DNA from: Natronomonas salsuginis
GTDB taxonomy: Archaea > Halobacteriota > Halobacteria > Halobacteriales > Haloarculaceae
Length of the DNA stretch: 64,000 bases
NCBI RefSeq assembly: GCF_005239135.1
Contig: NZ_QKNX01000002.1
Location: forward strand, 1 to 64,000
Reading direction: 5' to 3'
Within the stretch, counting starts at the first letter, position 1. Every line of letters starts with the position of its first letter. Made by a program: the position numbers and the translations under genes. Below are positions 21,618 through 35,942 of the stretch, one piece after another. The notes beneath the pieces are model-generated. The model was given only the letters and a program-made list of their open reading frames with translations, did not search any database and had not been told where the DNA came from.

Positions 21618-21827
21618 ATGACTGACTCCGACCTTCCTTTCGATGTCGAACAGTTAGCCAGACTTGTTGAGGGGCATAAGAACACCACTTCTCGGACGAA
21701 GCAACGATTCATCGAACGCAACATCGTCGATGTGGCTCTCGGCAATCCCGTCTCCGAATTAAATGAGGACGAGTACGACTCCACGTCGGTTGAGGCTCGA
21801 AGAGACGTGTTAGAGCGGATTGGGTGA
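21618..21827 (+). CDS. Small acidic protein, unrecognised
   Basis: A 69-residue protein (MTDSDLPFDVEQLARLVEGH...), acidic and predicted largely helical, with no family I recognise. The ATG at 21618 was preferred to a GTG at 21606. It ends two bases before the stop codon of the convergent HTH gene. First gene of the integrative element; function unknown. Confidence 0.6.
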   Translation: MTDSDLPFDVEQLARLVEGHKNTTSRTKQRFIERNIVDVALGNPVSELNEDEYDSTSVEARRDVLERIG

Positions 21828-21829
21828 TG

Positions 21830-22060
21830 CTACGGCTCGGAGGTAATACTCCAAATCAGCGAGTTACCTGCTTCTTTCGACGTGACTTTGCCCTCATCTT
21901 CGAGTCTCCGGAGTCGGTAATCTGCATTACGACGCGTACAACCTACGAGGTCGGCTACCTCTTTGGTTGCCGCAGGCTGTTTCTCGCTGACGGCTTCGAT
22001 GAAAGCGTCATCAGAGTACGTCTGTCTTCCATCGCCGCCGGTACTTTCGTCGGCAGTCAT
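21830..22060 (-). CDS. Small winged-helix/HTH transcriptional regulator of the element
   Basis: A 76-residue DNA-binding protein. Residues about 13-70 form an HTH or winged helix: DAFIEAVSEKQPAATKEVADLVGCTRRNADYRLRRLEDEGKV, where ATKEVADLVGC is helix 2-turn and RRNADYRLRRLE the recognition helix, followed by a wing. The ATG at 22060 is preferred; the frame runs open further upstream but would translate the palindromic operators. Two palindromes 33 and 59 nt upstream and the divergent zinc-finger gene suggest autoregulation and control of the neighbour. Confidence 0.82.
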   Translation of the reverse strand: MTADESTGGDGRQTYSDDAFIEAVSEKQPAATKEVADLVGCTRRNADYRLRRLEDEGKVTSKEAGNSLIWSITSEP

Positions 22061-22092
22061 ACGAGAGGCTACGCGATGAGCCGTCTTAGAAT

Positions 22093-22134
22093 TTCCTACA
22101 TAGGAACGCTTATGCTTGTTTCCTACGTAGGAAA
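22093..22134. promoter_or_regulatory. Paired palindromic operators between divergent genes
   Basis: TTCCTACATAGGAA (22093-22106, perfect 6-bp arms) and TTTCCTACGTAGGAAA (22119-22134, perfect 16-bp palindrome) share the half-site TTCCTA. Their centres are 27 bp apart. They flank AAGCATAAGC, a candidate TATA region for the minus-strand HTH gene, so binding would occlude transcription factor B/TBP. The divergent zinc-finger operon starts about 90 bp on the other side. Confidence 0.78.
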
Positions 22135-22158
22135 TAATAGAAGGAGACCGTACCCTCG

Positions 22159-22221
22159 GGGCGTTGGAAAACGCCCGGTGCTGGAACACCGGACGGTGGC
22201 CTTCTGTGGACCCAGAAAGCC
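22159..22221 (+). promoter_or_regulatory. Structured leader with successive stem-loops before the zinc-finger gene
   Basis: Stem 1: GGGCGTT/AACGCCC around a GGAA tetraloop (22159-22176). Stem 2: CCGGTG/CACCGG with loop CTGGAA (22175-22192), sharing two bases with stem 1 and so partly competing with it. Stem 3: GGC-TTCTG/CAGAA-GCC with loop TGGACC (22198-22221), ending immediately before the ATG of a 24-codon frame. Each loop exposes GGA. The arrangement suggests an RNA-level control or protein-binding leader. Confidence 0.5.
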
Positions 22222-22296
22222 ATGCGAAGCAACAACTCTACCGCTGAAAAGCGCATCGCTATTCAGAACGCCGTCGTCTGCGAGGTGGTCGCGTGA
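22222..22296 (+). CDS. Possible 24-residue leader peptide
   Basis: An ATG directly after the third leader stem-loop opens a 24-residue frame (MRSNNSTAEKRIAIQNAVVC...). Its TGA overlaps the GTG start of the zinc-finger gene (GTGA), a typical coupling overlap. It is too short to judge by content; the overlap is the only evidence that it is translated. Confidence 0.35.
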   Translation: MRSNNSTAEKRIAIQNAVVCEVVA

Positions 22297-22877
22297 GCGA
22301 CAAACCGAGCCGGAACGAGGAGCGAGTCGTCAAGTGCCCCGTAGAAGGGTGCGACGCCGAGAAATTGGCCCGCGGGATGCACCTCCACGTCCTCCGAAGT
22401 GTCGGCGACGGGCACGGCGACTCGGGAGAGATTCCAGACGATGTCTCCTTCGACGACCTCGAAGAAGCCGGAACGCAGGAGGTTGAGGTGAACTACCCGG
22501 CAGAGCGCGAAGTCGAGAGCGTGGCTCGGCTCTGCCCGTATTGTGGCGTACCGTTCAAAGGTAAACAGGGGGTGCTGATTCATCTCGGACAGGTCGCCGG
22601 GCGGAAGAACCACCCGCCGAATGCCTCGAAGGTCCACGAGCCGGAGGACTTCCCAGTCGTTGAACTCGACGATGACGAGAACATCGTTGGTGTCGTGAGT
22701 AGTCGTGCTGCGGCCTCCCCGGATAGCGACGCCGACGAGCAAGAAGCCGATGAGCCGGAGGCGTTCGCGACGTTCTCGAAGGACGATGTGGAACGCCTCT
22801 ACGAGGCCGTCTCGAAGGCCGGGGACAAACAAGCGAAGCGTATCCTCCTGCGAGCCTACCTCCATCAGCATGAGTAG
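22293..22877 (+). CDS. C2H2-type zinc-finger protein
   Basis: A 194-residue acidic protein with two metal-binding segments: CPVEGCDAEKLARGMHLHVL (about residues 11-30) and CPYCGVPFKGKQGVLIHLGQ with a following H (about 79-105), both resembling C2H2 fingers. The C-terminal 60 residues are acidic and end in a helical segment (FSKDDVERLYEAVSKAGDKQ). GTG is the most likely start, overlapping the small upstream frame. Such fingers are common in haloarchaeal plasmids and viruses, where they probably bind DNA; the target is unknown. Confidence 0.75.
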   Translation: MSDKPSRNEERVVKCPVEGCDAEKLARGMHLHVLRSVGDGHGDSGEIPDDVSFDDLEEAGTQEVEVNYPAEREVESVARLCPYCGVPFKGKQGVLIHLGQVAGRKNHPPNASKVHEPEDFPVVELDDDENIVGVVSSRAAASPDSDADEQEADEPEAFATFSKDDVERLYEAVSKAGDKQAKRILLRAYLHQHE

Positions 22878-23040
22878 TTGAGGTATCTCAAATTCACTTA
22901 CACCCCGGTGACGAAACGGCTATATTTCCTGCTCACGTTTTGTTTAGTGAGGCGGTTTCCTCGAAATTCTCTGACCCAGACTGTGTAGAGTCCGGTCTGA
23001 CTCAAAGTTAGAGATGCGGGGATTTTCCGCCTGTTCTCTC

Positions 23041-24939
23041 ATGTCTACAGTAGACCAATCAGCCGACGGCATCGCCAATACACGTAGCCTCACGACCGAG
23101 CAGGCACGGCGTAGATTGACTAATTGTCTCCAACGTGCCCTCTCTGACGAATCTGATACGCTCATCGACGCACCCACTTCTCTCGGGAAAACGCACATCG
23201 TCGCCTCCACGCCGTGGAGTAACTATTCAGAAATCACCGGGGGCCAGCCAGTAATCCATCTTCATGGGACCAAGGAAACCCGTCGAAAAGCCGCTGAGAT
23301 GAGCCGGCACGCTGGCGTCTCGTACGTTGAACTGGAAAGCGGTCTTGATGTCTGTCCGACCGCAAACGGTACTTTCGACACGGAACTCTCCACCGTAGAC
23401 GGGAAGTCCGCGTCCAAGTGGCTCATGAACGTCGTAAACCGGGGTGGCTACGAGTTCCACGAGGCACATCGGATGCTCCGGAGCCGTCTTGGAAAACTGC
23501 CCTGTGAAAACGACGGAGGCTGTCCAAGCAGTAGGCGGTGGGACGACATCCTCGACGATGAGGGCGAGCAGAGATACGACGTAATCCACGCAACATACGA
23601 CTTCGCCTACGTTGAGCAGTTCGTCGAGGATGCAAACATCGTGTTCGACGAACAGCCCGTCTTCAACGAGGAGGTGAAAAACAAGGCAGAGTTCCTGAAA
23701 AACTCTGTAAACGAAGTCCTGTCGCAGTCAGACGACCATCTCTCGTGGGTAAATCTCGTTGATGCAGTTCTCGACCAAGACGAGGGTCTACTCGGAAACT
23801 ATCAAAAGTTCCTCGCTCATACGAGCACTGGGCACAGGCCTTCCGGGCTGGGATACATTCACAGTCGAGTTCAGGACATCGCTGGAGCAGTCGCTCGCGC
23901 GGAGAGGGTGCTGGATGGAAAGCGATACTTCGGGAGGACGGGAGACACCTTGGTCGTTCTGGGCGAGCAGGGGTCGCTCCGGCAAGTCCACCAGCCACCG
24001 AACCTCTCTGATGTGCGGTGCGTCATCGGTCTCGATGCTCACCCGTCACTCCTTCTGTGGCGTCTCAATACTGTAGACGACCTCCAGTTGGAGGCCGTCC
24101 TCACTTCGGACGAACGCACACGGTGGCGAAAAGAGCGCCGAGGTCTCCACCTCGTTCAGGTAGGGAGGCACGCTCGTCCGTACACACGCGGATGGCGTGG
24201 TAAACATCCCGCAGAGAAAGCGAGGGCTATCATCGCCGAACTCAAACGGCACTACGGCTCCACGTTCCGAACCAGCATTAGTAGCAAGGCTATCGAAGGC
24301 GACGTTCGTCGGATGCTCTCCGGTGTTGGCGTGAGAGGTCTCGAAACGATGCACTTCGGCGACTTGAAAAGCCGAAACGACTTCGAGGATGAACGTGTCG
24401 GTCTTGTGGTCGGATGTAACGACCCCGGCGATGACCGTATCCTCGACCTGCTGGCGTTCTGCGAACTCAACGCTCTCCCGAAACTCGACGAAAACGGAGA
24501 GCGTGACTACGGACGAGAGTTCGTGGGACCGAATGCCGACGCCGCCGCTGAGTTCCTCGCCTCCGTTCGAGAGAACAACCTCGCTCAAGCCGTTGGACGG
24601 TACGCTCGCAACCCGCAGGACGAAGACTTCGAGGCGATGGTCTACGTCTGGAGTTCCGCGCTCCCTGACAGTCTGACCGACAGCATCGTCTCTGGAGTCA
24701 TCAGTCGGGTGACCGACCTCAAGGACGAAATCGAGCAGTACGTTCGTCGAGAAGGAACGGTCACGAAGAAGCAGGTGGCCGAAGCAGTCGATACCGGAGA
24801 CTCGTATGCCTACGAAGTCTTGCAAGAGTTGGCGGAGCAGGGCATCGTGACGGTCTCGAAGGGAACGGGCTACTACGGGGCAGACGAATACCAATACGTC
24901 TCGGGAACACTCTCACCGAGTGTGGAACTTGGCTTCTGA
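23041..24939 (+). CDS. Helicase-like ATPase with C-terminal winged helix, probable replication protein of the element
   Basis: A 632-residue protein. Near the N-terminus is a P-loop-like IDAPTSLGKTHIVAS (about residues 42-56). A Walker B-like IVFDEQPVF occurs near residue 200, and NNLAQAVGRYARNPQDEDF near residue 520 resembles superfamily 2 helicase motif VI (QxxGRxxR). The last 80 residues form a winged-helix-like unit (VTKKQVAEAVDTGDSYAYEVLQELAEQGIVTV). This combination is usual for plasmid or viral replication proteins of Halobacteria; a primase active site is not seen. ATG 23041 was chosen over 23014. Its codons are less GC-rich than the host backbone. A defence helicase role is less likely because it is convergent with the BREX-like operon. 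Confidence 0.65.
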   Translation: MSTVDQSADGIANTRSLTTEQARRRLTNCLQRALSDESDTLIDAPTSLGKTHIVASTPWSNYSEITGGQPVIHLHGTKETRRKAAEMSRHAGVSYVELESGLDVCPTANGTFDTELSTVDGKSASKWLMNVVNRGGYEFHEAHRMLRSRLGKLPCENDGGCPSSRRWDDILDDEGEQRYDVIHATYDFAYVEQFVEDANIVFDEQPVFNEEVKNKAEFLKNSVNEVLSQSDDHLSWVNLVDAVLDQDEGLLGNYQKFLAHTSTGHRPSGLGYIHSRVQDIAGAVARAERVLDGKRYFGRTGDTLVVLGEQGSLRQVHQPPNLSDVRCVIGLDAHPSLLLWRLNTVDDLQLEAVLTSDERTRWRKERRGLHLVQVGRHARPYTRGWRGKHPAEKARAIIAELKRHYGSTFRTSISSKAIEGDVRRMLSGVGVRGLETMHFGDLKSRNDFEDERVGLVVGCNDPGDDRILDLLAFCELNALPKLDENGERDYGREFVGPNADAAAEFLASVRENNLAQAVGRYARNPQDEDFEAMVYVWSSALPDSLTDSIVSGVISRVTDLKDEIEQYVRREGTVTKKQVAEAVDTGDSYAYEVLQELAEQGIVTVSKGTGYYGADEYQYVSGTLSPSVELGF

Positions 24940-25175
24940 ATCGTTCGCTACTACGTTCAAAGACTTTGTACGTGTAAGCGAACGGTTGAGGAACGCCTAC
25001 TGTTGGACGGCCACTCGTGCTACAGTTTGCTTCTGATTACAACGCGTTCCAAACCGATGACCCGGCTGGACTGGAACCGTCTCCAGATGTAATGACCTCT
25101 ACGTGTTCTGCCACTGTCCCTGTCGCTCCGAATTCTGAGTCCGCAACACGATGGATTTCGGACGCTTATGTAACC

Positions 25176-25565
25176 TTACTTCCGAGCCACCGCGTGTCCC
25201 GCCTTAACGACGCGCGGCTCCTCCACAAACAGATTACCCACCGGGAGGTAGACGGCGTCGCCACCACGTTCGACGCGAACGCTGAACACATCGTCGTCCA
25301 CGAGGTCGCCGTCGAAGACGAACTGGACGGCCTTCGGACCGCGGAACGACCCGCTCTCACGAAGCACGTCACGGAGTTTGCGGGCGGCCTCATCGAGTTC
25401 ATCCGCGTCGGTCTCGTACAGCAGGTCTTCAAGTCGCGTCACCGTTAGACGCGGCGGGAGCGTCCCGTCGTTGGCGAGCCGGCGGAAAAACGCGAGCGCC
25501 GGCAGTTCCTCCTCGGTGTCCTCCACGCGCTCCGTCACGAGATTGTAGCCGGCGTTGAGTGACAT
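25176..25565 (-). CDS. Unrecognised 130-residue protein, last gene of the BREX-like operon
   Basis: A 129-130-residue acidic protein (MSLNAGYNLVTERVEDTEEELPALAFF...). Visible are a helical N-terminal half with LTVTRLEDLLYETDADELDEAARKL and a beta-rich C-terminal half (AVQFVFDGDLVDDDVFSVRVERGGDAVYLPVGNLF). Its ATG starts 2 bases after the methylase stop, so it is translationally coupled and belongs to the defence module. It matches none of the small BREX subunits I can recall (BrxA, BrxB, BrxF) on inspection, but remote similarity cannot be judged by eye. Confidence 0.75.
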   Translation of the reverse strand: MSLNAGYNLVTERVEDTEEELPALAFFRRLANDGTLPPRLTVTRLEDLLYETDADELDEAARKLRDVLRESGSFRGPKAVQFVFDGDLVDDDVFSVRVERGGDAVYLPVGNLFVEEPRVVKAGHAVARK

Positions 25566-25567
25566 GG

Positions 25568-28261
25568 TCAGAATTGGGAGAGGCTCATTTCCATCACGTT
25601 CTCGTAGCGGTCGTCGCCCGTCGCGTCGGCGAGGAACTCCGCGAGTTCTTGTAGGTCGTCGGTTTTCCACTCGCTGAGGAACTCAGAGGTGTTCTGGTCG
25701 GTCTTGTAGAGGTGGTAGAGGTACTGCACCTTGTCCACGTCGAGGAGTGCGTCGGAGTCCACCTCGTCGCCGTTGAGCGTCTTCTGGGAGCCGTCCCCAC
25801 TCTTGCTGAGGTTCCGCTCGATGTGGTGGACGCGCTCGTCGGCGGAGACCGGCTCCTTCTTGTCGCGCGGCCCTTTCACGAGTTTTTCGTCTTCGAGGTC
25901 GCTGACGTTCAGGTTCTTCGCCAGCAGTTGCTTGTTGAGGTCGTCGTAGCCCTCGGGACCGCGTTGAACGAACGCGGCGTACGCCTCGCTGATGGAGTCG
26001 ATGCTTGCCGGGAGGTTGACCGAACCTTCGAGGACCTGCTCGATGATGGAGTCCACCGTGTCGAGCGCCTCGTCAATGTCGGCCTGCTCACCTTCGGAGT
26101 AGACGTTCGGGTAGTGCCGGGAGTAGTAGTACATACACTTCCCGCGGAGGATGACGCCGAGGTCGGCCTTCGAGAGGTCTTCGTGACGCTCGCGTTCTTC
26201 GGCGGCCATGTCCTGCAACTCGAAGAACAGGTTCTGGCGGAGTTCAGTGAGAGTGATTTCCTCGTCGGCCTGCTCCTTGTTCGCGTAGATGAGGATGTCA
26301 TACTCCGCATTGTCGAGGTCGGCGATGTGCGGATTGTTTGGCATTTCTGACTGGACGGGGTACGCGCCGGTAACGGTGAATCCGCTCCGGATGAGGGCCT
26401 CCAGAATAACCGACCACGCCTCATTCTCGTTGTGATGGTAAGTGAAAACCATCTCGCCGTCCTGCTTCAGGACTCGGTGGCACTCTGAGAAGACGTTTGC
26501 AAGCGACTCAACGAAGAACTCCTCGCCTTTGTTCGCGTTGTTGTTGGCGACGATTTCACGGGCTTTCGGCACGAGTTCCGGTTTGAACTCCTCGTACTCC
26601 TCGTGGAGGCACTCTCGGAGCCATACGTAGAAGTAGTCGGATAGTTCCGAATACTGGACGTTGTCGTAGTACGGTGGGTCGGTGATGACGAAGTCTATAG
26701 ACTCGTCTTCCTCACCCATCCGTTCCGAGGTCTTACAGTTCAGAGCAGTAACGCGACTTTCAGTGATGTCCTCATTGTCGACATAGAATTGCTCTACGTC
26801 CCCTTTTTGACGATTTTTGACCTTCTCGAAAGGCCGTTCACAATACTCTTTTGCATCGTAGACTTTGTCAAAGAAGTTCTTTAATGAGGAAATATTCCCT
26901 GCGTCGTTCAATGGATTCGGCTCAACTGGCTGAACTTTAGGACTGAAAGCATGGCGTTCAAATACGCTAATTCCTTTGGAGTTACCAGCATGCCAGCGGC
27001 AGAGTTTTGAATTGTATTCTAAAGAAGCAGATACTGTTGTAATCAGAAATTCAGCGATGTTCTGTTCGTCGGCATTTTTCAAATTAAGCCCGCCTACTCT
27101 ACGTGCTTTGTCAAGTAACAGACCAAAGGTAAGGAGATGACGGTCGGTGAATAGTTCGTTAAACTTCTCATAGTTGTAATTCAGTAATGCACCGCTCTTG
27201 TCCCCGTCGGGAATCTTTTGTTCGGGAATAGGTAGGTTCTCACGTAACTGTCTAAATCTCTGTTCTGACTGTCCGACGCGCTTCGCATCGTCCTCGTCAA
27301 ACTCTTTAATGCGTTTGTTTCCACGGGGGTCAACATACTGAAGCGCGAATCGGTCAAACGTGGGGCGTTCATCGTGACGCTTGAGAGTTTCTTTGACATC
27401 GTGTTTGTGCCCGTTAGAACAGGTGTACTTTCCGTATCCGTAGGTGCCGTCGTTAGGGTCAAATTCTTGACCGCAGTTTAGGCAAACTTCATTACCATCT
27501 TCAGAAACAGTAATAACTCCTCCATCAGCGACTGAAACTTCCGTACCCTTGTCGAGACCTTTGCTTCGGTCTTCCAGTTCGATGATGCGGTCGTCGCAAT
27601 CTTGATTCGGACAGTAAAGTGCTCCCGGACGCGTTTTCATAGTCTTAGCCAGTTGGTAGCGGGGGAACAACTGAACTTTCTCATCACACGTCAGGCAGGG
27701 GATACGCTGTGACTGGAAGTAGTAGAGGACTTCACACTCTTTCCCTGTCTCCGGGTCGATAGTAGTGTAGTATTCTTCGAGTTCCTCACGCGTCTCCTCA
27801 AGAATCCGGTCGAACTCGCGTTCGAGAGCGTCGAGATTCACGTCGTCCATCGACTTCTTCTCGGTCCACCACGCAACCGGGTTGAGTTCATACCCGATGA
27901 CGTCCGCACCGAGCCGGTTGCTCTCGACGAGCGTCGTCCCACCTCCTGCAAAGGGGTCGAGAACGGTCACGTCGCGGTCGATGTGTTCGTCGTTCGGATT
28001 AATCTCGTCGTGGTAGGAGTCAAGATACAAGCCGTAGTGCGTTCCCGTGGTTCGCTCGGTGAGGATGTCATCTTTCGTGATGGTGTCATCCGTCATCGCT
28101 GCGAGGCTGAGACACCGGAACGTCGAGCCGGGACGACGCGCCCACCACTTGTGGAGCGAGTAGATGGGTCGGTACACGTCACGGCGGTAGGTCTCCTTCT
28201 CGGCCAGTTCGTCCATCAGGTTTAGCGGGAGTTTGTCCCACGTCTCGGTTTTGTCAGTCAT
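25568..28261 (-). CDS. DUF1156-type DNA adenine methylase (PglXI-like)
   Basis: An 897-residue protein. The N-terminus is the DUF1156 signature (YRPIYSLHKWWARRPGSTF, about residues 30-48). DPFAGGGTTLVE (about 102-113) is the SAM-binding motif I, and VITDPPYYDNVQY (about 523-535) is the catalytic DPPY motif of N6-adenine methylases. In between are Cys pairs of zinc ribbons (PCLTC, YCPNQDC, VCLNCG, TCSNGHKH). This architecture is that of PglXI, the methylase of BREX type 3. It likely marks host DNA at a short motif. It lies 9 nt after the PglZ gene with a GAGGAG ribosome site in the gap. Confidence 0.92.
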   Translation of the reverse strand: MTDKTETWDKLPLNLMDELAEKETYRRDVYRPIYSLHKWWARRPGSTFRCLSLAAMTDDTITKDDILTERTTGTHYGLYLDSYHDEINPNDEHIDRDVTVLDPFAGGGTTLVESNRLGADVIGYELNPVAWWTEKKSMDDVNLDALEREFDRILEETREELEEYYTTIDPETGKECEVLYYFQSQRIPCLTCDEKVQLFPRYQLAKTMKTRPGALYCPNQDCDDRIIELEDRSKGLDKGTEVSVADGGVITVSEDGNEVCLNCGQEFDPNDGTYGYGKYTCSNGHKHDVKETLKRHDERPTFDRFALQYVDPRGNKRIKEFDEDDAKRVGQSEQRFRQLRENLPIPEQKIPDGDKSGALLNYNYEKFNELFTDRHLLTFGLLLDKARRVGGLNLKNADEQNIAEFLITTVSASLEYNSKLCRWHAGNSKGISVFERHAFSPKVQPVEPNPLNDAGNISSLKNFFDKVYDAKEYCERPFEKVKNRQKGDVEQFYVDNEDITESRVTALNCKTSERMGEEDESIDFVITDPPYYDNVQYSELSDYFYVWLRECLHEEYEEFKPELVPKAREIVANNNANKGEEFFVESLANVFSECHRVLKQDGEMVFTYHHNENEAWSVILEALIRSGFTVTGAYPVQSEMPNNPHIADLDNAEYDILIYANKEQADEEITLTELRQNLFFELQDMAAEERERHEDLSKADLGVILRGKCMYYYSRHYPNVYSEGEQADIDEALDTVDSIIEQVLEGSVNLPASIDSISEAYAAFVQRGPEGYDDLNKQLLAKNLNVSDLEDEKLVKGPRDKKEPVSADERVHHIERNLSKSGDGSQKTLNGDEVDSDALLDVDKVQYLYHLYKTDQNTSEFLSEWKTDDLQELAEFLADATGDDRYENVMEMSLSQF

Positions 28262-28270
28262 AATCTCCTC

Positions 28271-29191
28271 TTAGGTGGTAATTCGTAGAACGGGCGTCAG
28301 GCACTCCGGCAGGCTGAATCCCCCGTGCATGATTCGCTTCGATGCCCCGCGCTTGGTCCACGTGTAGTGACCTTTGACCACGTAGTGCCCGCCGACACGC
28401 TCGATGACGCCGGACTCGCGCAGTTGGTCGAAGGCGTACCCGTCCTCGACCTCGCGGTGGCGTCCGTGGAACTTGTTCGAGAGCGCCTCCTCGTCACTGT
28501 CCGAGAGCGCGTAGGGATTCCCCCCGAGATGGTTGATGTAACCATGGTCGCTCGTCACGAGGAACTCCCCGTGAACGCTCTCGGTGACGATGTCCTCCAG
28601 CAGGCCCTTCACGTCCTCGTAGATGTCGGTTAACTCCTCGACCGAGTAGTTTCCCTTCATCGCCTCTTCAAGCCGTTGGTCGGGGTGGCGCGTCCAGACG
28701 TACTCCGGCTCGGTGCCGGGCAACTGCGGGACATCGAGGTCGCCCACGAAGCGGTAGTCGTCGCGGTTGACCGCCGACGGACTGTTGGCATCAAACCACT
28801 CGCGGCAGATGAACTCCGTCGCGGAGGGCAGGCGCTCGACAGCGGCCCAATCGAAGGACACGTTCCAGTCGTGGTCCGCCGCGAGGTCTCGTTCCAGTTG
28901 GAACCCCTCGCGGAAACTGAGCGCGTCCATGATGACGCCACAGCCGGAGTCAAGTTGCGTGATGGGATGGTCACCCATCGAAGCCTTCAGTTCGTCATAC
29001 AACTTAGGCTCTTGCTGGCCGAGGTGGTGTTCGAGCGCGCGCGTTCGGTACTCCGAGTCGTTGAGATTGCGGTCAGCGAGCGCGTCCGGCTTCGACCAGA
29101 TACGGCGGAGGCACTCGAACGTGCCATCGAGAACGGATTCGCCGCTGACGAGTTCTGCGAGTTCGTCCGCCCCATAGAGTCCGTCAGTCAC
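28271..29191 (-). CDS. Minimal PglZ-like alkaline-phosphatase-superfamily protein
   Basis: A 306-residue protein. GVIMDALSFREGF (about 85-97) matches the metal-binding first motif of PglZ, LPSATEFICREWF (121-133) the Ser/Thr nucleophile region, LVTSDHGYIN (211-220) the Asp-His metal site, and MHGGFSLPECLTPVL (288-302) the C-terminal signature. BREX PglZ proteins are usually two to three times this length, with N- and C-terminal extensions missing here, so this is nearly the bare catalytic fold. GTG start overlaps the ATPase stop by 8 nt. PglZ is essential for BREX defence and methylation, though its reaction is not settled. Confidence 0.85.
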   Translation of the reverse strand: MTDGLYGADELAELVSGESVLDGTFECLRRIWSKPDALADRNLNDSEYRTRALEHHLGQQEPKLYDELKASMGDHPITQLDSGCGVIMDALSFREGFQLERDLAADHDWNVSFDWAAVERLPSATEFICREWFDANSPSAVNRDDYRFVGDLDVPQLPGTEPEYVWTRHPDQRLEEAMKGNYSVEELTDIYEDVKGLLEDIVTESVHGEFLVTSDHGYINHLGGNPYALSDSDEEALSNKFHGRHREVEDGYAFDQLRESGVIERVGGHYVVKGHYTWTKRGASKRIMHGGFSLPECLTPVLRITT

Positions 29192-32012
29192 CCTTCTCGA
29201 CCTCCATCCAGACTCCGAACTCGGCGTCGTCCGGCACGTCGAGCCGGAGTAGTACGTCGTTGAGCAGGTCGTCCCGCGAGAGAGGTATCTCCGGTGAGAT
29301 GGTCAGCGTCTCATCGACTGTTACGTGGTCGGCAAGGCTGTCGGCGTCCAGACCGCGGCTGGCGACGCCGTCATCGTCAAGCGTTCCAGTATACGAGAGG
29401 TGGAGCGTGTGAATCTTCGAGTCGATGCCGAGTTCCCGTTCCAATCCGTCGATGAGTCCCGGCTTGTCGTCGGCGTCGAACTCGCCCATCAGCGGGAACC
29501 GCGTGGTGTTGCTCACTTCGAGGTCTTCGTCTTCGACCTCATCTTTCAGTTCCTCGAACTGCTTCACGAGGTCAGCGGTGTTGCCGCCCTCGACGGTGAC
29601 CTTCCCCTCCTTGATGTCGGAGGCGTCGAACTCGAAGCCGCACTCGCATTTTGTGCCCTCTAACTCGTTTCCGCATTGCGGACAGGTGAATACCTGACTC
29701 GCTTCCGCAGTCGTTCCGCCGGCCTCATCGGTTCCGGGACTCGCCGTAGACGAACTGCTTGTCGTCTGCGTGGTGGTGGCATCGACGGAGATAGTCGCTG
29801 GCTCGTCGTCATCGTCGTCTTCGACGGTCTGGACGTAGTCCCCGTGGACAAGGACGGTGTCGCTCCCAATGCTCCCGACGCGCTGGCCGAAGTAGGTTCC
29901 AACCTTGACGACCTCGTCCTGACATAGCGACTGAATGGCGTCCGTGAGTTCGCGCTCGTCTGTGAGGGTCGGGTACGTCGTGTTTCGGTAGAAATCGTTG
30001 AGCAGATGCTGGTACTGGATGCCTCCCCCTTCAGCGGCTTCCACGGCCTCCTCTACGTCAGAGCGGAGTTGACTGCTGTCAGGGCTGACGACCTTGATGG
30101 TGGCGTTGTAGAAGTCGGCGTTCCCGCTCACCGGGAGTCCCTGTGGGAACAGGCCACGCTCCGTCGACGTGTGAACCGTTCCGTACTTGTCACGTACGCG
30201 GTCGCGTAGGTTCTGGTAGTTCTGGTCGTGGATGTCGTCGAAGCCGTCGGGAAGAACTTCCTCCTCGCGCTGGAGTTCCTCCCCGGCGACGACCTTCCGA
30301 GCGAGTTCCCGAATCCCCGTATTCGAGTCAACGCTGGACCGCTTCTCTGGCGTCACGAGAACCAGCGTGTTGTTGAACTCCCGCTCTTGGCCCGTCGTGA
30401 GGGCCTCAAACTCCTCATCGTAACTTCGTTTCGCGGCGAGGGAGACAACCACTTTTAGCGTCTTGTTGTCGGGGATGTCCTGCTCGGTGTTGACCGGGTT
30501 GAGGATGTGGACGTTGTTGTGTCCGCCGAACAGGTCGTCCTTGACGAGCCGCTCGACGCGATGGATAGCCGTGTTTTTGTGGATGTCCTCGGCCTTCTTT
30601 TCGATGCGAGCCGCGGGGTTCTCGTCTGTGTCGAAGGCGTACTCGCCGTTAATCCGGAAGACGTGCCACGCGTGTCCGAACACGTCCTCGGTGAACGTCT
30701 GAACGATTTCGTGGGCGTTCTTGCCCTTCCGCATTGTACCCATCAGCATCTGCCGCTTGTTCGCGCCCTCTTCTCCGCCTCGTGCGAGACTGTGGAGCAA
30801 GACGATGTTGAGCAGTTCCTCAACGTGCGGCTCGAAGACTCGCTCTCCGTTGCGGTCGTCCGAGGTCGCTTCCCCGAGGCGGTGGTAGTCGTTCAGATAC
30901 TTGCTCACCAGTTCCCCGTCGATGAACCGGAACCACCCTGTGTACTCAAACACGTCAACGTCGCCGGTCAGGATGAGGTCCTCCTTGTGGTAGTTCCCAG
31001 CGAATATTTCGGTGAGGAGGTGGAGGAGACCGCGGGCGTCCTGATGGCCCTGTTGTTCGGAGAATTTGTCCATCAGGGTGTCCAACGCGACTGGGTGGAA
31101 AGGATAGTAGTCCTCGATGCGACCCTCCATCTCCTGATAGTCGGTGAGTTGAATCTGTCCGTTGTTCCGGTATACGTCGGTGTACTCCTGTGCCAACGAT
31201 GCGAGGCCGTCGGGGTCGGTTACGTCCCCAACGAGCCGGTGGAGGAGGAACCGAATCTTCTCGTCACGGCGGCGTGAGAGGTCGTGGCGAAATGGGTTCG
31301 TCCGCGGGAGAATCGCCTCCACGTCTGCCTCCTCGAACAGGAGGGAGACGTAGACCGCGAGCGGGGTGTCGTCTCGTCCCGCGGCTTCGAGGAGGTTCTG
31401 GAGGAAGCCGAGGTTGTCGTCGCGGTACTCGGCTCGTCCGCTCATCCCGAACCACCGCTCGAACTCGTCGATGAAAACTGCGGTCGGTTGGTCGTCAAGT
31501 GCGTCTCGAATCTCGTGGACTCCCGGCGGGTTTCCGGTTTGCCACGCGTCGATGTCCAGATAGTCTCCGACGGCGACGTGGAGTTTGTCGTAGTCGCTAT
31601 CGAGGTTCAGCATCTGGAGGGCAGAAGTCTGCGCGTCGTCGGGAAGGGAGGCGTCGATGTCGTTCTCGTTGAGCCATCGCTGTCCTAAGTCCGGGGAGGA
31701 CAGCAGGTGGTACAGCACGAGTTCGATGTGGCTCTTACCGCTCCCGAACTCGCCACCGATGATGTGTGCGCCTTCGGAGACGCTCGTGGAAGCATCGAAC
31801 TTCTCCGTGGTCCGTTTGATTATGGTAGTGAGCGTTTCCGTCGGGTAGGTTATGCTCAGAATCCGCTCGGCGTTCTGCTCGGGCGATTCTCGACTGTCGT
31901 AGAGGTTGTACAGGCTGACTTCGTCCAGAAGGTTGTCAGCCGTGATTTCCCCGTCTTCCGCCTGAATCTCCTCAGACGGAGTAATATAATCGGAAATTAC
32001 ACGAGAACTCAT
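29184..32012 (-). CDS. DUF499/BrxC-PglY-type ATPase
   Basis: A 942-residue AAA+-like ATPase heading the defence operon. Walker A is GGEFGSGKSH (about 86-95) and Walker B VFIDEFERWFG (about 179-189). A zinc ribbon, CPQCGNELEGTKCECGFEF, lies near 772-790, preceded by a Ser/Thr-rich linker; a beta-rich C-terminal domain follows. BrxC/PglY of BREX is assigned to this family and is often about 1200 residues, so this one is somewhat short. It probably forms a ring on DNA that couples the methylase and PglZ partner to phage sensing. Overlap with the PglZ gene indicates coupling. Confidence 0.88.
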   Translation of the reverse strand: MSSRVISDYITPSEEIQAEDGEITADNLLDEVSLYNLYDSRESPEQNAERILSITYPTETLTTIIKRTTEKFDASTSVSEGAHIIGGEFGSGKSHIELVLYHLLSSPDLGQRWLNENDIDASLPDDAQTSALQMLNLDSDYDKLHVAVGDYLDIDAWQTGNPPGVHEIRDALDDQPTAVFIDEFERWFGMSGRAEYRDDNLGFLQNLLEAAGRDDTPLAVYVSLLFEEADVEAILPRTNPFRHDLSRRRDEKIRFLLHRLVGDVTDPDGLASLAQEYTDVYRNNGQIQLTDYQEMEGRIEDYYPFHPVALDTLMDKFSEQQGHQDARGLLHLLTEIFAGNYHKEDLILTGDVDVFEYTGWFRFIDGELVSKYLNDYHRLGEATSDDRNGERVFEPHVEELLNIVLLHSLARGGEEGANKRQMLMGTMRKGKNAHEIVQTFTEDVFGHAWHVFRINGEYAFDTDENPAARIEKKAEDIHKNTAIHRVERLVKDDLFGGHNNVHILNPVNTEQDIPDNKTLKVVVSLAAKRSYDEEFEALTTGQEREFNNTLVLVTPEKRSSVDSNTGIRELARKVVAGEELQREEEVLPDGFDDIHDQNYQNLRDRVRDKYGTVHTSTERGLFPQGLPVSGNADFYNATIKVVSPDSSQLRSDVEEAVEAAEGGGIQYQHLLNDFYRNTTYPTLTDERELTDAIQSLCQDEVVKVGTYFGQRVGSIGSDTVLVHGDYVQTVEDDDDDEPATISVDATTTQTTSSSSTASPGTDEAGGTTAEASQVFTCPQCGNELEGTKCECGFEFDASDIKEGKVTVEGGNTADLVKQFEELKDEVEDEDLEVSNTTRFPLMGEFDADDKPGLIDGLERELGIDSKIHTLHLSYTGTLDDDGVASRGLDADSLADHVTVDETLTISPEIPLSRDDLLNDVLLRLDVPDDAEFGVWMEVEKGD

Positions 32013-32038
32013 CTATTCTTAGTGTAAGTGGCTGTCAA

Positions 32039-32359
32039 TTAGTCCTTGCGTTGACCGTTTACACTATCGAGAGGAGAGATGGTTGACCGCTTCAGCGTCT
32101 GTACAGGGAAGCAATTCCTGAAAAATGCAGTCAAATCTGACCACAATAGTGAGTCGAACTTACCAAATTTCGCGCGTGCCTTGCCGACTGGTGTTCCAAC
32201 CCCCGACCCCTCCCTCCAGTAGACCTCCGAGAACAGGAGAATCCACTCACAGCCATCCCCGTTTGACTGCGCTTTCTGGCGGTATGGCTCCTCTCGGCGT
32301 GAAGTCGGGGCCAAGGCGCGTGCGCATTGGCTGTCGCCGACCGGTACTCTGAACTTCAT
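32039..32359 (-). CDS. Doubtful 106-residue reading frame upstream of the ATPase gene
   Basis: Starts MKFRVPVGDSQCARALAP and ends 26 nt before the ATPase ATG on the same strand, so it could be a first operon gene. It contains WILLFSEVYWREG and DLTAFFRNCF, which look protein-like, but the product is basic and unlike the acidic proteins around it, and I recognise no family. Confidence 0.28.
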   Translation of the reverse strand: MKFRVPVGDSQCARALAPTSRREEPYRQKAQSNGDGCEWILLFSEVYWREGSGVGTPVGKARAKFGKFDSLLWSDLTAFFRNCFPVQTLKRSTISPLDSVNGQRKD

Positions 32360-32395
32360 CTTTCGAGGGGGTCGCTCTCTCTAAGGTTACCACTC

Positions 32396-32558
32396 TTAGG
32401 GTATCTACTCTCCGTGGCAACTCGCTCTTAGAACTCGTGTTTAAACTCGATGACCCCCCGGAGTACAGTACGCTCTGTTAGAACACGTTGGTTGAGAGGA
32501 TGGGTTTACACTCTCTATTAGAACACGAGAGTCCCGAGAACGAGCCTTTTAGAAGTTG
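32396..32558. repeat. Short direct repeats of the type TTAGAACACG
   Basis: TTAGAACTCG (32428-32437), TTAGAACACG (32478-32487), TTAGAACACG (32518-32527) and TTAGAAGTTG (32549-32558), with a weaker TTAGGGTATC at 32396. Most are preceded by CTCT. Spacings are 32, 50, 40 and 31 bp. They may be regulator sites or iterons of an origin; the irregular spacing argues against a strict array. Confidence 0.5.
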
Positions 32559-32587
32559 TATTGAAAGAATTGAAATTCACGGTTAAG

Positions 32588-32609
32588 CCCTCTCGAAACG
32601 TAGAGAGGG
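32588..32609 (+). promoter_or_regulatory. Hairpin directly before the 45-residue gene
   Basis: CCCTCTC (32588-32594) pairs with GAGAGGG (32603-32609) around an 8-nt loop, ending one base before the ATG at 32611. If transcribed it would cover the ribosome entry region and could reduce translation. Confidence 0.5.
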
Positions 32610-32610
32610 T

Positions 32611-32748
32611 ATGGAACTCACGCCGAGAGAGGCGGCCTTTCTGCTCGACGAGATGAGCGAGATAGAAGACGACGAAACGAGGTACCCGTCGGCTCGAACC
32701 GAAGCGAGGCGGCTCCGCAAGAGGGCAGAGGCCGCGCTCACGGAGTAA
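32611..32748 (+). CDS. Small acidic/helical protein of 45 residues
   Basis: MELTPREAAFLLDEMSEIED... is a 45-residue helical protein with an acidic N-terminal half and an Arg-rich C-terminal helix (ARTEARRLRKRAEAA). It has good haloarchaeal codon use and a clear ATG. I recognise no family; small proteins of this type are frequent in haloarchaeal viruses and plasmids. Confidence 0.5.
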   Translation: MELTPREAAFLLDEMSEIEDDETRYPSARTEARRLRKRAEAALTE

Positions 32749-32810
32749 TCAAAAACGCGCGCGTTCGGATTCTCCCGAGCAGTTACTATCGTCGGCTTGC
32801 TTCACAGCGT

Positions 32811-33071
32811 ATGTACAGAGGCAAAGAGAGGTTCGTCTCGGGAACTGCCCCGAGACCGGAGCAACCGCGGTGGCGCTCATCGGGTCGATACGACTGGAGA
32901 CACTCGGCAGGGATTGAGAACGAGAATTCAACGCAACCCAAGCCACGGAGGTTTCGGCAGGGGTTGGCTTCGAGGTCTCGAACTCGGGGAGCGACCGGGG
33001 CAGAGCAGAAAGTGAGCAACTCCGTTTGGGTGACTGTATCGAACCGGAGGGGTGGTCGGCTCTATGTCTGA
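32811..33071 (+). CDS. Basic 86-residue protein, doubtful
   Basis: MYRGKERFVSGTAPRPEQPR... is Arg-rich and lacks recognisable domains. Its stop overlaps the start of the next frame by 8 nt, which is the only support for translation. Strongly basic proteins are unusual in a haloarchaeon, though nucleic-acid-binding element proteins can be basic. Confidence 0.33.
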   Translation: MYRGKERFVSGTAPRPEQPRWRSSGRYDWRHSAGIENENSTQPKPRRFRQGLASRSRTRGATGAEQKVSNSVWVTVSNRRGGRLYV

Positions 33072-33312
33072 CCGACCTATCCGGGTCCGATTGACAAAGA
33101 CGCTCGGGCCGAACCAGCATCCAGAGTGCGGCCTGTTCACCGTACCTCCCGACGAGGCAATCACGATTACTCGGGGGATTGTTACGCAGGTCGCCCGGGA
33201 ACGGCTCGGCGACGCTGACGGAACGGCATCGGACACAGAGGTTCTCGACGAAGCGACTGCCGTCCTCAAAGAAATCGAGGGAGAGTTAGAGAGACGGTTT
33301 GATACGGAGTAG
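33064..33312 (+). CDS. Unrecognised 82-residue protein
   Basis: MSDRPIRVRLTKTLGPNQHP... has a beta-rich N-terminal half and a helical, acidic C-terminal half (DTEVLDEATAVLKEIEGELERRF). ATG at 33064 was preferred to the in-frame ATG four codons earlier at 33052 because it gives the common MSD start. It precedes the AT-rich membrane cassette by 75 nt. Function unknown. Confidence 0.55.
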   Translation: MSDRPIRVRLTKTLGPNQHPECGLFTVPPDEAITITRGIVTQVARERLGDADGTASDTEVLDEATAVLKEIEGELERRFDTE

Positions 33313-33387
33313 ATTGTCGGGGGGTCATCGAATTACACCACCTGATGTCAAATAGGCTTAAGATGGACTGTTCAATATAACTAATTG

Positions 33388-33579
33388 ATGACAGACATCG
33401 GGGAAGCCATCTCCGCCGCGCTAATTTTGGTCGTAGGAGCAGGGGTACTTGCCATTATGGCTGGTGCTGATACATCTCTTGTAACTAACTTAATGTCGAG
33501 TGGTATAACACTCATCGTCTACGTTGGTGTGTTTGGGATTTTTGCGCTGATTCTCCTGAACATCGTCCAACAAATCTGA
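33388..33579 (+). CDS. Small two-helix membrane protein, first gene of the AT-rich cassette
   Basis: A 63-residue protein (MTDIGEAISAALILVVGAGV...) with hydrophobic segments at about 8-27 and 38-58. The ATG at 33388 directly follows an in-frame TTG. CTTAAG at 33358-33363 is a TATA candidate about 25-30 nt upstream. The gene is clearly AT-richer than the host genes, with codons such as ATA and TTA. Product unknown; its layout resembles small holin- or pilin-like proteins, but there is no direct evidence. Confidence 0.62.
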   Translation: MTDIGEAISAALILVVGAGVLAIMAGADTSLVTNLMSSGITLIVYVGVFGIFALILLNIVQQI

Positions 33580-33589
33580 GGGTGGTAAG

Positions 33590-33853
33590 ATGTCTGATGA
33601 ATCTATTTGGAATCGCGTACAAGCAGAGATGCAGAAAGACGGACTTGACCTGCTTGAGCAAGTATTGGCTCTAATTACCGGAGGTGTCCTTGGGGGTAAT
33701 GCGCTTCGGATAGCAAATGCGGACTTGCCAATTTTGTATGAATTAGGTGCGTATGCCGGTTTATTCGTTCTTGGATTTATTGTACTTGGAACGACACATC
33801 TTGTTGTCTCCTACAACCGTGTACTCAGCGCAGATGTAGAAGATGATGAATAG
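33590..33853 (+). CDS. Small two-helix membrane protein, second gene of the AT-rich cassette
   Basis: An 87-residue protein: polar amphipathic N-terminus (SDESIWNRVQAEMQKDGLDLLEQ), hydrophobic segments at about 24-42 (VLALITGGVLGGNALRIA, weak) and 52-74 (LGAYAGLFVLGFIVLGTTHLVV), and an acidic tail. It starts 10 nt after the preceding gene with GGTGG just upstream of the ATG as a ribosome site. It is probably co-transcribed with its neighbour and perhaps forms a complex with it. Confidence 0.62.
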   Translation: MSDESIWNRVQAEMQKDGLDLLEQVLALITGGVLGGNALRIANADLPILYELGAYAGLFVLGFIVLGTTHLVVSYNRVLSADVEDDE

Positions 33854-33856
33854 AGA

Positions 33857-33885
33857 CCTCACCAATTCATCGTGAATTGGGGAGG
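33857..33885 (+). terminator. Hairpin between the membrane-protein pair and the coiled-coil gene
   Basis: CCTC-A-CCAATTCA / TGAATTGG-G-GAGG with a TCG loop, followed by TGATTTTA. The strong stem and T-rich flank right after a stop codon suggest termination of the two-gene transcript. TTTTATG at 33889-33895 is then the TATA box of the next gene. Confidence 0.55.
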
Positions 33886-33920
33886 TGATTTTATGTACTT
33901 GATACCAGTAACTAAATTGA

Positions 33921-34931
33921 ATGGTTGATTTCCTGCCATATGCCGCCGTTGCTGGTGGAACACTCCTCTTTTCTGGAGGGGTGCGTCGAGTGGGTGAACT
34001 TATTGCTGAGGGAGGTTGGAATCGGATTTTAGCAGACACTGTTGAAAGAGACAACAAGAAAGACAACAAGCAGGTTCTGAGTGCATTAAAATCACAACAA
34101 GGTCAACTTGAGCAGAAAGAAAAACAGATTCAGAGCCGAGAACAGGAACTATCCGAAATCCGTGGTGAAAAGCAAGAACTCAAGAAGCGTCTATCGGACT
34201 TTGAACGAATCACTCACTCTCTGAAACGAGAAAATTTAGCCAGAGAACGTCTTATAGAGCGGTATTGGCAACCTCTACATGCGGTCATCCTCTGTTTTGC
34301 GGAGCAAACACACGACGGTGAAGAGTCTGACAAGTGGCTTCGTGACTTGCTAAAGGAAAGGTACAACCTCCACAACCTAACAGGATTCACTACTATCATT
34401 CCTCCCGCAGAAGTTCCCTCAAAACTCAAAGGAAAAAACAACAGTCGCGAGAAACTGAAGGATTGGATTGAGGAAGACCTGTATGGACAGTATGCTAATG
34501 CGAAGTCAACCATCTGCTTTGCAGGCGTGATTGACTTACGAAATGTCTATTCTCGTACTGACCTCGAAAACGAAGAACGTACACCCCTTTTCAGCACTAT
34601 AGACGAGGAACTGGAATTAGAGGAGATTTTTAGTGAAGAGGATTTCTCCAAATTACTCGCTTCAGACGGAGTTAATCTTTCAAAAGCCATTGAACAAGGC
34701 GACATCCCGTTTTTGGCTTCAAAAGCAATCTCATCGGATGAGTTAGACCGGGTTCATGACCACCAAGATGAGATTGAGTCCAGTCTTGGTAACCCTAATC
34801 TGCGAACTATTGCGGAGGAGGTTGATGTTTCCAGTCTCTCCGAGGCCCTTTCACCATACGTCGAGAGTCCCGAGGATGTCGCTTCGTCGATTAAAGAGGA
34901 AGCAAAAATTTGGAAGAGGGAACTCTACTAA
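33921..34931 (+). CDS. Membrane-anchored coiled-coil protein, unrecognised
   Basis: A 336-residue protein. The first 28 residues (MVDFLPYAAVAGGTLLFSGG...) form a short hydrophobic anchor. Residues about 45-110 are a long charged coiled coil (QQGQLEQKEKQIQSREQELSE...). A mixed globular region follows, with ERLIERYWQPLHAVILCFAEQ and TTIIPPAEVPSKLKG, and an acidic helical C-terminus. No known domain is seen. Its own TATA box TTTTATG lies 26-32 nt upstream, so the transcript is nearly leaderless. Base and codon use are AT-richer than the rest of the element, suggesting a different origin. A sensor or effector role in defence is possible but is inference. Confidence 0.65.
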   Translation: MVDFLPYAAVAGGTLLFSGGVRRVGELIAEGGWNRILADTVERDNKKDNKQVLSALKSQQGQLEQKEKQIQSREQELSEIRGEKQELKKRLSDFERITHSLKRENLARERLIERYWQPLHAVILCFAEQTHDGEESDKWLRDLLKERYNLHNLTGFTTIIPPAEVPSKLKGKNNSREKLKDWIEEDLYGQYANAKSTICFAGVIDLRNVYSRTDLENEERTPLFSTIDEELELEEIFSEEDFSKLLASDGVNLSKAIEQGDIPFLASKAISSDELDRVHDHQDEIESSLGNPNLRTIAEEVDVSSLSEALSPYVESPEDVASSIKEEAKIWKRELY

Positions 34932-34937
34932 TGGTAT

Positions 34938-35942
34938 CTACACGTCCACGAGGTAGTCCTCCCGCCGTTCCATCTGCTCGTTCTTCGTCGCTTTGTCGTA
35001 GTGCTTGTCCATCACCCCACGAGACATGTCCACACGGTCAGCGGTCACGTCCTTCGGCTGGCCCGCGTTCAGCGCCTCGGTAACGTAGCCGCGCCGGAGC
35101 GCGTGCGGACTCACCGACGCAGGGCACTTGCTCGCGGTGTTGTAGGAGGTCGCCTCGCACTCCGGTAAGTCGCGACTCATCGGGCACTCCCCGGTGTAGT
35201 GGCACGGTCGAGTCGCGGTGTAGATGTTCCGCTGAATCGTCGTCGGCTCGCACCGCTTCCCGTGGCTCGACATCAACAGCGGCGTCCGTCCGTGTTCGTC
35301 CTCGCCGCCGGGGTGATTGAACCGGAAGTAGTCACGGAGGACCGCGGCGACTTTGTCGCTGATGCGAATGTCGCGCTCGCCTTTGCCCTTGTTCTTGAGC
35401 GGGGTCTCGGTCTCCGGACGGTGACGAACGCGGAGGTAGGGCCTGCTCCCGTCCTCAAAGTCGTCCGTGTCGAGCGCGTACAGGGAACTCCGGCGCATCC
35501 CGGTCTTCCAGAGGAGCAGGACGATGACGTGCCGGAGGGTCGCGTACTCGTGTTTGTCGAGGTAGTCGATGATTTGGGTCGCTTCGTCCTTCGTCAGGAC
35601 GGCGTCGGCTACCTCCTCGGCGTCATCGGGTTTGGGGATGCGGACCATCATCCGCAGGTCTTTCGGAACGGCGTTGATGTGCTCGCAGAAGCGGACGAAG
35701 TCCTTCACGCAGGTCATGTCTGTCTTGAGCGTGATTGTCTTCACCTGCTCCTGTCGCCACTCCTTGAACTGCTGGATGTCGTCGCTGGTGAGGTTGTTGA
35801 GGTTCGTGAGGTCCTCATCTTCGAGCCAGCCGACGAACTTCCGCAGGGTCGTCTCGTAGTTCGAGAGCGTGGAGTCAGTCACGTCGTTGGCCTTGTCGTT
35901 CAGGTAGCGGTTCATTGCGTCACGCGGCGGTGTGGCGTTCAT
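34938..35942 (-). CDS. Tyrosine recombinase/integrase of the element
   Basis: A 334-residue integrase. The N-terminal SAM-like core-binding domain (SNYETTLRKFVGWLEDEDL) spans about 1-100. The catalytic domain has Arg in LLWKTGMRRSSLYAL (about residue 180), HxxR in SPHALRRGYVTEAL (about 285-298) and the nucleophile Tyr in MDKHYDKATK (about 318). Cys residues between (CHYTGECPMSRDLPEC) suggest a zinc knuckle as in many haloarchaeal integrases. ATG at 35942 is preferred to longer frames that run into the attachment site. It ends 6 nt past the convergent coiled-coil gene and begins 140 nt from attR. Confidence 0.92.
   Translation of the reverse strand: MNATPPRDAMNRYLNDKANDVTDSTLSNYETTLRKFVGWLEDEDLTNLNNLTSDDIQQFKEWRQEQVKTITLKTDMTCVKDFVRFCEHINAVPKDLRMMVRIPKPDDAEEVADAVLTKDEATQIIDYLDKHEYATLRHVIVLLLWKTGMRRSSLYALDTDDFEDGSRPYLRVRHRPETETPLKNKGKGERDIRISDKVAAVLRDYFRFNHPGGEDEHGRTPLLMSSHGKRCEPTTIQRNIYTATRPCHYTGECPMSRDLPECEATSYNTASKCPASVSPHALRRGYVTEALNAGQPKDVTADRVDMSRGVMDKHYDKATKNEQMERREDYLVDV

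What the first reader, a model, noticed from the sequence alone, without database searches (positions are those of the whole stretch)
25176..32012. Compact four-gene BREX-like defence operon with an unusual gene set
One leftward operon with overlapping or nearly touching genes encodes a DUF499/BrxC-PglY ATPase, a PglZ-like protein, a DUF1156 (PglXI-type) methylase and an unknown 130-residue protein. PglXI-type methylases belong to BREX type 3, whose usual set also has BrxF, BrxHII helicase and BrxA; none of these, nor BrxB or a Lon-like protease, is adjacent. The gene order (ATPase, PglZ, methylase, small) also differs from type 3. It may be a minimal BREX-like system in its own right, or part of a modification-linked module such as haloarchaeal Pbe, whose composition I do not recall with certainty.
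Basis: partly seen in the sequence, partly recalled or inferred. Interest (0 to 1): 0.86.

Follow-up and report, generated by a model that had tools for sequence, protein, structure and literature searches.

The report
Helicase-free BREX-like haloarchaeal defence cassette
This is a compact four-gene antiviral cassette of salt-loving archaea, a relative of the recently named "Type-3 BREX-related" systems that consistently does without the helicase those systems carry, so it may be one of the smallest machines able to tell self from foreign DNA by methylation.

Summary
The operon is real: on the minus strand, a DUF499-type ATPase, a stand-alone 306-aa PglZ with its metal site intact, a DUF1156 N6-adenine methylase with two zinc fingers, and a 129-aa protein. 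The same four genes, in the same order, occur at all 26 haloarchaeal loci recovered here (two clades, down to ~25-35% identity) and at two loci in other Halobacteriota. No complete helicase gene of the HmaA/BrxHII kind was found next to any cassette; four hosts (95-99% complete genomes) have no HmaA-like match anywhere. The host has no BrxA, BrxB or DndC. The cassette sits in a ~15-kb integrative element in tRNA-Ala. The kind is already named in part: Rakesh & Krishnan 2026 describe "Type-3 BREX-Related" systems (DUF499 ATPase, methylase, Snf2 helicase, stand-alone PglZ, iSTAND). Four bacterial plasmid copies show the same order plus the helicase gene at the end. The window's system is therefore a helicase-less variant. 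The 129-aa protein sits where the bacterial iSTAND-sized gene sits, but homology could not be shown. Relatives of it also occur in haloarchaeal DUF499 loci that have a helicase and no PglZ, including one in this genome. Verdict: new variant of a known kind; the Pbe and canonical BREX-3 readings are rejected.

The parts
29184..32012 (-). DUF499/HmaC-type AAA+ (STAND/ORC-like) ATPase, 942 aa, first gene of the operon; Walker A GGEFGSGKSH and Walker B-like FIDEFERW intact; C-terminal zinc ribbon CPQCGNELEGTKCECGF
   Evidence: motif residues invariant in 22 homologues
28271..29191 (-). stand-alone PglZ phosphodiesterase/nuclease domain, 306 aa, no N- or C-terminal extension; proposed effector
   Evidence: D89, T125, D171, D215, H216, H289 invariant in 24 homologues, E175 nearly so
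25568..28261 (-). DUF1156 / HmaB-type DNA N6-adenine methylase, 897 aa; SAM motif DPFAGGGT and catalytic DPPY with a two-zinc-finger recognition insert between them
   Evidence: C189 C192 C222 and C260 C263 C281 invariant
25176..25565 (-). 129-aa conserved small protein, fourth core gene; no named family; ATG two bases after the methylase stop
   Evidence: 24 homologues aligned; AlphaFold2 pLDDT 88.5; phrog_32705, 1e-5
21080..21151 (+). tRNA-Ala (CGC); its last 22 bases (21130-21151) are one att copy of the integrative element
36092..36113 (+). second att copy (22 bp, 1 mismatch to the tRNA-Ala 3' end; 0 expected by chance)
34938..36098 (-). tyrosine integrase of the element, next to the distal att
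21152..36113 (.). ~15-kb integrative element of lower GC (0.51-0.61 against 0.64-0.68 in most of the rest of the window) carrying the cassette

Best explanation
The operon is a helicase-less, four-gene variant of the DUF499-centred Type-3 BREX-Related (BR) defence systems, carried as cargo of an integrative element. Proposed mechanism: (1) the DUF1156 methylase, using its zinc-finger recognition insert, marks adenines in a specific motif of the host genome (fold and motifs shown; activity inferred). (2) The DUF499 ATPase, with the methylase and the small protein, forms a scanning/scaffold complex that engages unmarked incoming DNA (inferred from BrxC and BREX complexes). (3) The complex licenses the stand-alone PglZ, a metal-dependent phosphodiesterase, to nick the foreign DNA or block its replication (active site shown; nicking inferred from Type I BREX PglZ). 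(4) The 129-aa protein is a partner or adaptor that couples the complex, filling the place of the BrxB/iSTAND-type protein (position shown; homology not shown). No dedicated Snf2 translocase is encoded with the cassette, so any translocation would have to come from the DUF499 ATPase or from a host helicase.
For: Same four genes, same order, in 26 of 26 haloarchaeal loci (window + L029-L053), plus L098 and L099 outside haloarchaea and several named isolates and plasmids. Best-scoring helicase HMM hit near the cassettes is a ~450-aa fragment ~4 kb away in one locus (with positive controls at 0 to 1e-245). Hosts G284, G266, G326 and G108 have no HmaA-type match genome-wide. BrxA and BrxB absent from the host genome and from 18 of 26 hosts. 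PglZ metal-site residues invariant; match to BREX PglZ and PorX. Bacterial Type-3 BR loci have the identical order plus SNF2. Methylase tree: window, Type-3 BR, archaeal PglZ loci and form-B loci split from Type-1 BR at 100/100. PglZ cleaves DNA and contributes to BREX defence (PMC12205998). Patchy distribution (cassette in 26 of 392 genomes searched), carriage on plasmids and an integrative element, and PglZ up to 93% identical in Halorubrum and 91% in Halobellus fit a mobile defence system.
Against: No experiment shows defence or methylation by any four-gene cassette. ATPase and PglZ assignments rest on weak database scores, supported by fold and synteny. The PglZ model has modest confidence (pLDDT 66). 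The small protein could not be linked to iSTAND by profile comparison (26 of 150 decoys score as high) nor by fold (no hit under 0.001). Deep branches of the ATPase tree are unresolved, so a single helicase loss against primitive absence cannot be told apart. Many hosts do have SF2 helicases elsewhere, so use of a host helicase is not excluded.
Confidence: 0.68

Rival explanations
1. The cassette is an ordinary Type-3 BR system that borrows a helicase encoded elsewhere, for example the 599-aa SNF2 protein of the second DUF499 locus in this genome (contig C1).
For: The host has such a helicase at C1:456-457 kb beside two HmaB-like methylases and a DUF499 ATPase. Many other hosts have HmaA-like proteins.
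Against: Hosts G284, G266, G326 and G108 have no HmaA-type match at all. The helicase in this genome belongs to another complete locus (L120). The cassette never carries a complete one.
Confidence: 0.15
2. PglZ acts as a nucleotide or cyclic-oligonucleotide phosphodiesterase (signal or NTP-pool enzyme) rather than as a DNA nickase, so the system blocks viruses by altering nucleotide pools or signalling.
For: Closest folds are PorX and then ENPP-type enzymes; PorX-type PglZ cleaves cyclic and linear oligonucleotides, and BREX PglZ also cleaves cyclic oligonucleotides (PMC12205998; PMC12839542).
Against: BREX PglZ also nicks and linearises dsDNA, and its nuclease activity contributes to defence. 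No nucleotide cyclase-like gene recurs beside the cassette: no fifth gene is conserved there at all.
Confidence: 0.2
3. It is a decayed BREX-3 or Type-3 BR locus that lost genes and no longer works as defence.
For: Gene set is reduced relative to BREX-3 and to bacterial Type-3 BR.
Against: The same reduced set is conserved across two divergent haloarchaeal clades and other archaea, with all catalytic residues and open frames intact.
Confidence: 0.04
4. The cassette is an epigenetic or maintenance module of the mobile element (modification plus post-segregational killing) rather than antiviral defence.
For: Carried on plasmids and on an integrative element.
Against: Its relatives are defence systems (HmaA phage defence as cited in PMC12839542); neighbours in other hosts include defence-associated genes; some copies are chromosomal.
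Confidence: 0.12

Closest known systems
Type-3 BREX-Related (BR) system (Rakesh & Krishnan, NAR 2026, PMC12839542); bacterial plasmid examples L110 Aminobacter, L111 Klebsiella, L112 Ca. Tenderia, L115 Ensifer
   Same: DUF499 ATPase, stand-alone PglZ with conserved metal site, DUF1156 N6-methylase (two zinc fingers, reported there for a subset), a small gene after the methylase; same order ATPase-PglZ-methylase-small
   Different: No Snf2 (BrxHII/HmaA-like) helicase gene at the end of the operon; small protein 129-132 aa instead of 165-173 aa and not detectably homologous; ATPase only ~22-25% identical in local matches
HMA / Type-1 BR system (HmaA helicase, HmaB methylase, HmaC ATPase)
   Same: HmaB- and HmaC-like proteins
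   Different: HMA has a helicase, often with a nuclease fused, and no PglZ; here PglZ is present and no helicase
Haloarchaeal DUF499 loci with a helicase (here 'form B': L120 in this genome and L121 Halorientalis with two or three methylases; L122 Haloglomus with one)
   Same: DUF499 ATPase, DUF1156 methylase and a homologous ~130-aa small protein (5e-9 to 6e-13)
   Different: Carry a ~600-aa SNF2 helicase and a ~390-aa protein nearby, and no detectable PglZ
BREX type 3
   Same: Logic of ATPase + DUF1156-like methylase + PglZ
   Different: No BrxA or BrxHII (BrxF not scored); ATPase is DUF499 rather than BrxC/DUF6079; PglZ lacks the long extensions
Pbe (DndCDEA-PbeABCD)
   Same: Haloarchaeal, modification-based antiviral system
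   Different: Different proteins and modification (phosphorothioate); no DndC in this genome

Membership tests
Type-3 BR | DUF499-type ATPase | tested here: met
   HmaC 1e-15, DUF499 sub-cut-off 7e-5; homologues annotated DUF499 in GenBank
Type-3 BR | DUF1156-type N6-methylase | tested here: met
   HmaB 5e-44, DUF1156 26.3 bits over cut-off; tree groups it with Type-3 BR against Type-1 BR
Type-3 BR | stand-alone PglZ with intact metal-binding residues | tested here: met
Type-3 BR | Snf2 helicase of BrxHII architecture in the locus | tested here: not met
   not in the window or in 25 related loci apart from a ~450-aa fragment ~4 kb away in one; no HmaA-type match genome-wide in four hosts
Type-3 BR | iSTAND gene (82% of taxa) | tested here: inconclusive
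   small gene in the corresponding position; profile comparison not above decoys; Foldseek hits are often P-loop folds but none significant
Type-3 BR | gene order ATPase-PglZ-methylase-small | tested here: met
   identical to L110, L112, L115 up to the helicase; L111 has two genes inserted
HMA (Type-1 BR) | HmaA helicase | tested here: not met
BREX type 3 | BrxA and BrxHII (with BrxF) | tested here: not met
   BrxA and BrxB Pfam models absent from the host genome; no BrxHII-like helicase in the operon or within the stretches scanned; BrxF was not scored on its own
Pbe | Dnd modification genes with PbeABCD | tested here: not met
   no DndC in the host genome; PbeC only a weak (1e-3) match to a separate coiled-coil gene at 33921-34931
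any BREX/BR system | methylation of host DNA and virus resistance | not testable with these tools
   needs long-read methylation calls and infection assays

The most novel reading that the evidence does not exclude
The four-gene set is a distinct archaeal BREX-related type that needs no helicase/translocase gene, with the ~130-aa protein as an undescribed core subunit shared between PglZ-bearing and helicase-bearing DUF499 systems; it would be the smallest known BREX-like machine able to discriminate self and restrict.
Probability: 0.3. Interest if true: 0.66.

Novelty: new variant of a known kind. Interest (0 to 1): 0.47.

Why it matters
BREX and BR systems have three to eight genes, and which parts sense, move along DNA and cut is still unsettled. 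A naturally helicase-free set of four proteins with a bare 306-aa PglZ is a good minimal model for asking whether PglZ is the effector and whether translocation by a dedicated helicase is needed. The HMA system is defined with a helicase and the BREX types with other genes, so such loci are probably under-annotated (inference). Copies in Halorubrum lacusprofundi ATCC 49239, Haloarcula japonica and a Halobacterium salinarum plasmid make the question testable in culturable organisms.

Tried and rejected
Pbe: rejected on composition and absence of DndC. BREX-3: rejected (no BrxA/BrxB; methylase nearer HmaB; DUF499 ATPase). The adjacent 641-aa + strand gene (23014-24939, DinG-like with a winged helix) as the missing helicase: rejected; it is convergent, matches a viral family (phrog_27506) and has no counterpart in the other loci. 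Small protein = bacterial iSTAND: tested by hhalign with several alignment sets and 150 column-shuffled decoys, not supported. Small protein fold: P-loop proteins (RecA, Rad51 paralogues, AAA+) are frequent in the PDB list but at E >= 0.15, so not claimed. Viral carriage of the cassette: PglZ, methylase and small protein searched in 50,697 phage records; only distant Sulfolobus virus methylases matched. RadC next to the ATPase in two related archaeal genomes and a HerA-like gene after L098: not conserved, so not counted as parts. The PMC12839542 supplement, which lists its 134 archaeal Type-3 BR taxa, could not be read, so some of these loci may already be listed there.

Full report
What is there. 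The four ORFs of the finding exist on the minus strand at 25176-32012 and are packed as an operon. The first encodes an AAA+ ATPase whose best match is HmaC of the HMA system (1e-15) with a sub-threshold DUF499 match. The second encodes a 306-aa protein that Pfam's PglZ model misses, but which matches PADLOC and NCBIfam PglZ models weakly, the solved BREX PglZ 9nv3 at 4e-7 and, by predicted fold, PorX and BREX PglZ at 2e-6 to 9e-6 (model pLDDT 66). Its residues D89, T125, D171, D215, H216 and H289 are invariant in 24 homologues. The profile alignment pairs T125 with the threonine of the LPSxT motif and H289 with the HGG histidine of BREX PglZ. The double mutant T538A/H741A of Escherichia fergusonii PglZ no longer binds metal (PMC12205998); equating those residues with T125/H289 is my inference from the motifs. 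The third encodes a DUF1156 methylase with motifs DPFAGGGT and DPPY and two zinc-finger cysteine clusters in the insert between them. The fourth encodes a 129-aa protein without a named family.

It recurs as a unit. A search of 392 genomes of the order with the 306-aa PglZ found 26 genomes, the window's included, with a stand-alone relative. In all of them the neighbourhood holds ATPase, PglZ, methylase and a 128-132-aa small gene in that order (L042's small gene was recovered by hand; L046 has one extra ORF between PglZ and methylase). Two clades are evident: 14 loci at about 45-85% identity and 12 at about 24-35%. No fifth gene is conserved beside them in general. Two loci outside the haloarchaea (L098, L099) carry the same four genes, with the small protein recognised at 1e-4 and 4e-15; two more (L096, L097) lie at contig ends and are partial. 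Named carriers include Haloarcula japonica, Halorussus marinus, Halobiforma haloterrestris, Haloferax larsenii, Halorubrum lacusprofundi plasmid pHLAC01 and a Halobacterium salinarum plasmid.

What is missing. An HMM built from nine BR-type Snf2 helicases recovers its controls at 0 to 1e-245. Near the cassettes its strongest hit is a ~450-aa fragment ~4 kb away in Haloarcula japonica; the remaining hits are weak. Genome-wide, four hosts (G284, G266, G326, G108; 95-99% complete) have no match to the HmaA model. BrxA and BrxB are absent from the window's genome and from 18 of 26 hosts; where present, they occur together and away from the cassette. DndC is absent from the host and found in 2 of 26.

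What it is. Rakesh and Krishnan (PMC12839542) united DUF499-centred systems as BREX-Related (BR) types. Type-3 BR has the DUF499 ATPase, DUF1156 methylase, a nuclease-free Snf2 helicase, a stand-alone active PglZ and usually an iSTAND; a subset of its methylases has two zinc fingers. Bacterial plasmid loci retrieved here show the order ATPase-PglZ-methylase-165/173 aa-SNF2 (Aminobacter, Tenderia, Ensifer; Klebsiella has a Sir2 and an ATP-binding gene inserted). The window's operon is that order with the last gene absent. In a methylase tree the window, the bacterial Type-3 BR loci and the other archaeal loci separate from Type-1 BR at 100/100, while relations inside that group are poorly resolved. 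Because a stated core component (the helicase) was tested and not met, I do not file it as a canonical Type-3 BR; it is a helicase-less variant of that lineage.

The small protein. AlphaFold2 gives a confident model (pLDDT 88.5, pTM 0.84). Foldseek lists many P-loop proteins but none is significant, and profile comparison with the bacterial 165-aa proteins does not beat shuffled decoys (26 of 150 reach it). The position is that of the iSTAND-sized gene; homology is not shown. Relatives also occur after the methylase, or near it, in haloarchaeal DUF499 loci that have a SNF2 helicase and no PglZ: L120 in this same genome (5e-9), L121 (6e-13), L122 (2e-10). It is therefore a recurrent subunit of archaeal DUF499 systems, independent of whether PglZ or a helicase is present.

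Where it sits. The last 22 bases of tRNA-Ala (21130-21151) are repeated with one mismatch at 36092-36113, where none is expected by chance, next to a tyrosine integrase (34938-36098). The ~15 kb between has lower GC. The cassette is cargo of this element. PglZ identities of 91-93% in Halobellus and Halorubrum point to recent transfer.

Mechanism. Most likely, methylation marks self DNA, the ATPase-methylase-small protein complex engages unmarked DNA, and PglZ nicks it. Protein identities, catalytic motifs, conservation and absence of the helicase are shown here; activities and coupling are inferred from BREX. The main uncertainty is whether PglZ acts on DNA or on nucleotides, and whether a host helicase helps.

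Noticed in passing
L120 (G000:C1:453000-472999): The same genome carries a second DUF499 locus: methylase 884 aa, ATPase 1076 aa, methylase 874 aa, 135-aa homologue of the window's small protein, plus a 599-aa SNF2 helicase and a 393-aa protein with a weak match to PbeC. No PglZ detected.
   Followed up: partly
21130-36113: Integrative element in tRNA-Ala with a 22-bp att repeat and a tyrosine integrase; it also carries a 194-aa virus-like gene (22293-22877, phrog_14797, 6e-55) and a DinG-like 641-aa gene (23014-24939).
   Followed up: partly
L123 7311-7928, L126 7465-7971, L127 3483-4100: Type-1 BR-like loci (Haloferax gibbonsii, Nostoc, Haloarcula marismortui) have an unnamed 168-205-aa gene between ATPase and methylase, the position of PglZ in the window's cassette.
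   Followed up: no
L111 6110-8987: The Type-3 BR locus on a Klebsiella plasmid (28 Klebsiella plasmid records match its PglZ) has a SIR2 gene and an ATP-binding gene inserted between PglZ and methylase.
   Followed up: no
L097 5359-6069, L099 231-923: A RadC (JAB-domain) gene lies directly upstream of the ATPase in two related non-haloarchaeal genomes.
   Followed up: no
L113 10198-11052: In Halorubrum lacusprofundi a second adenine methylase (284 aa) follows the clade-2 cassette; ORFs of the same length follow it in L045, L049 and L053, with further shared genes on the other strand.
   Followed up: no
37631-38638: UvdE-type UV-damage endonuclease gene just outside the element.
   Followed up: no
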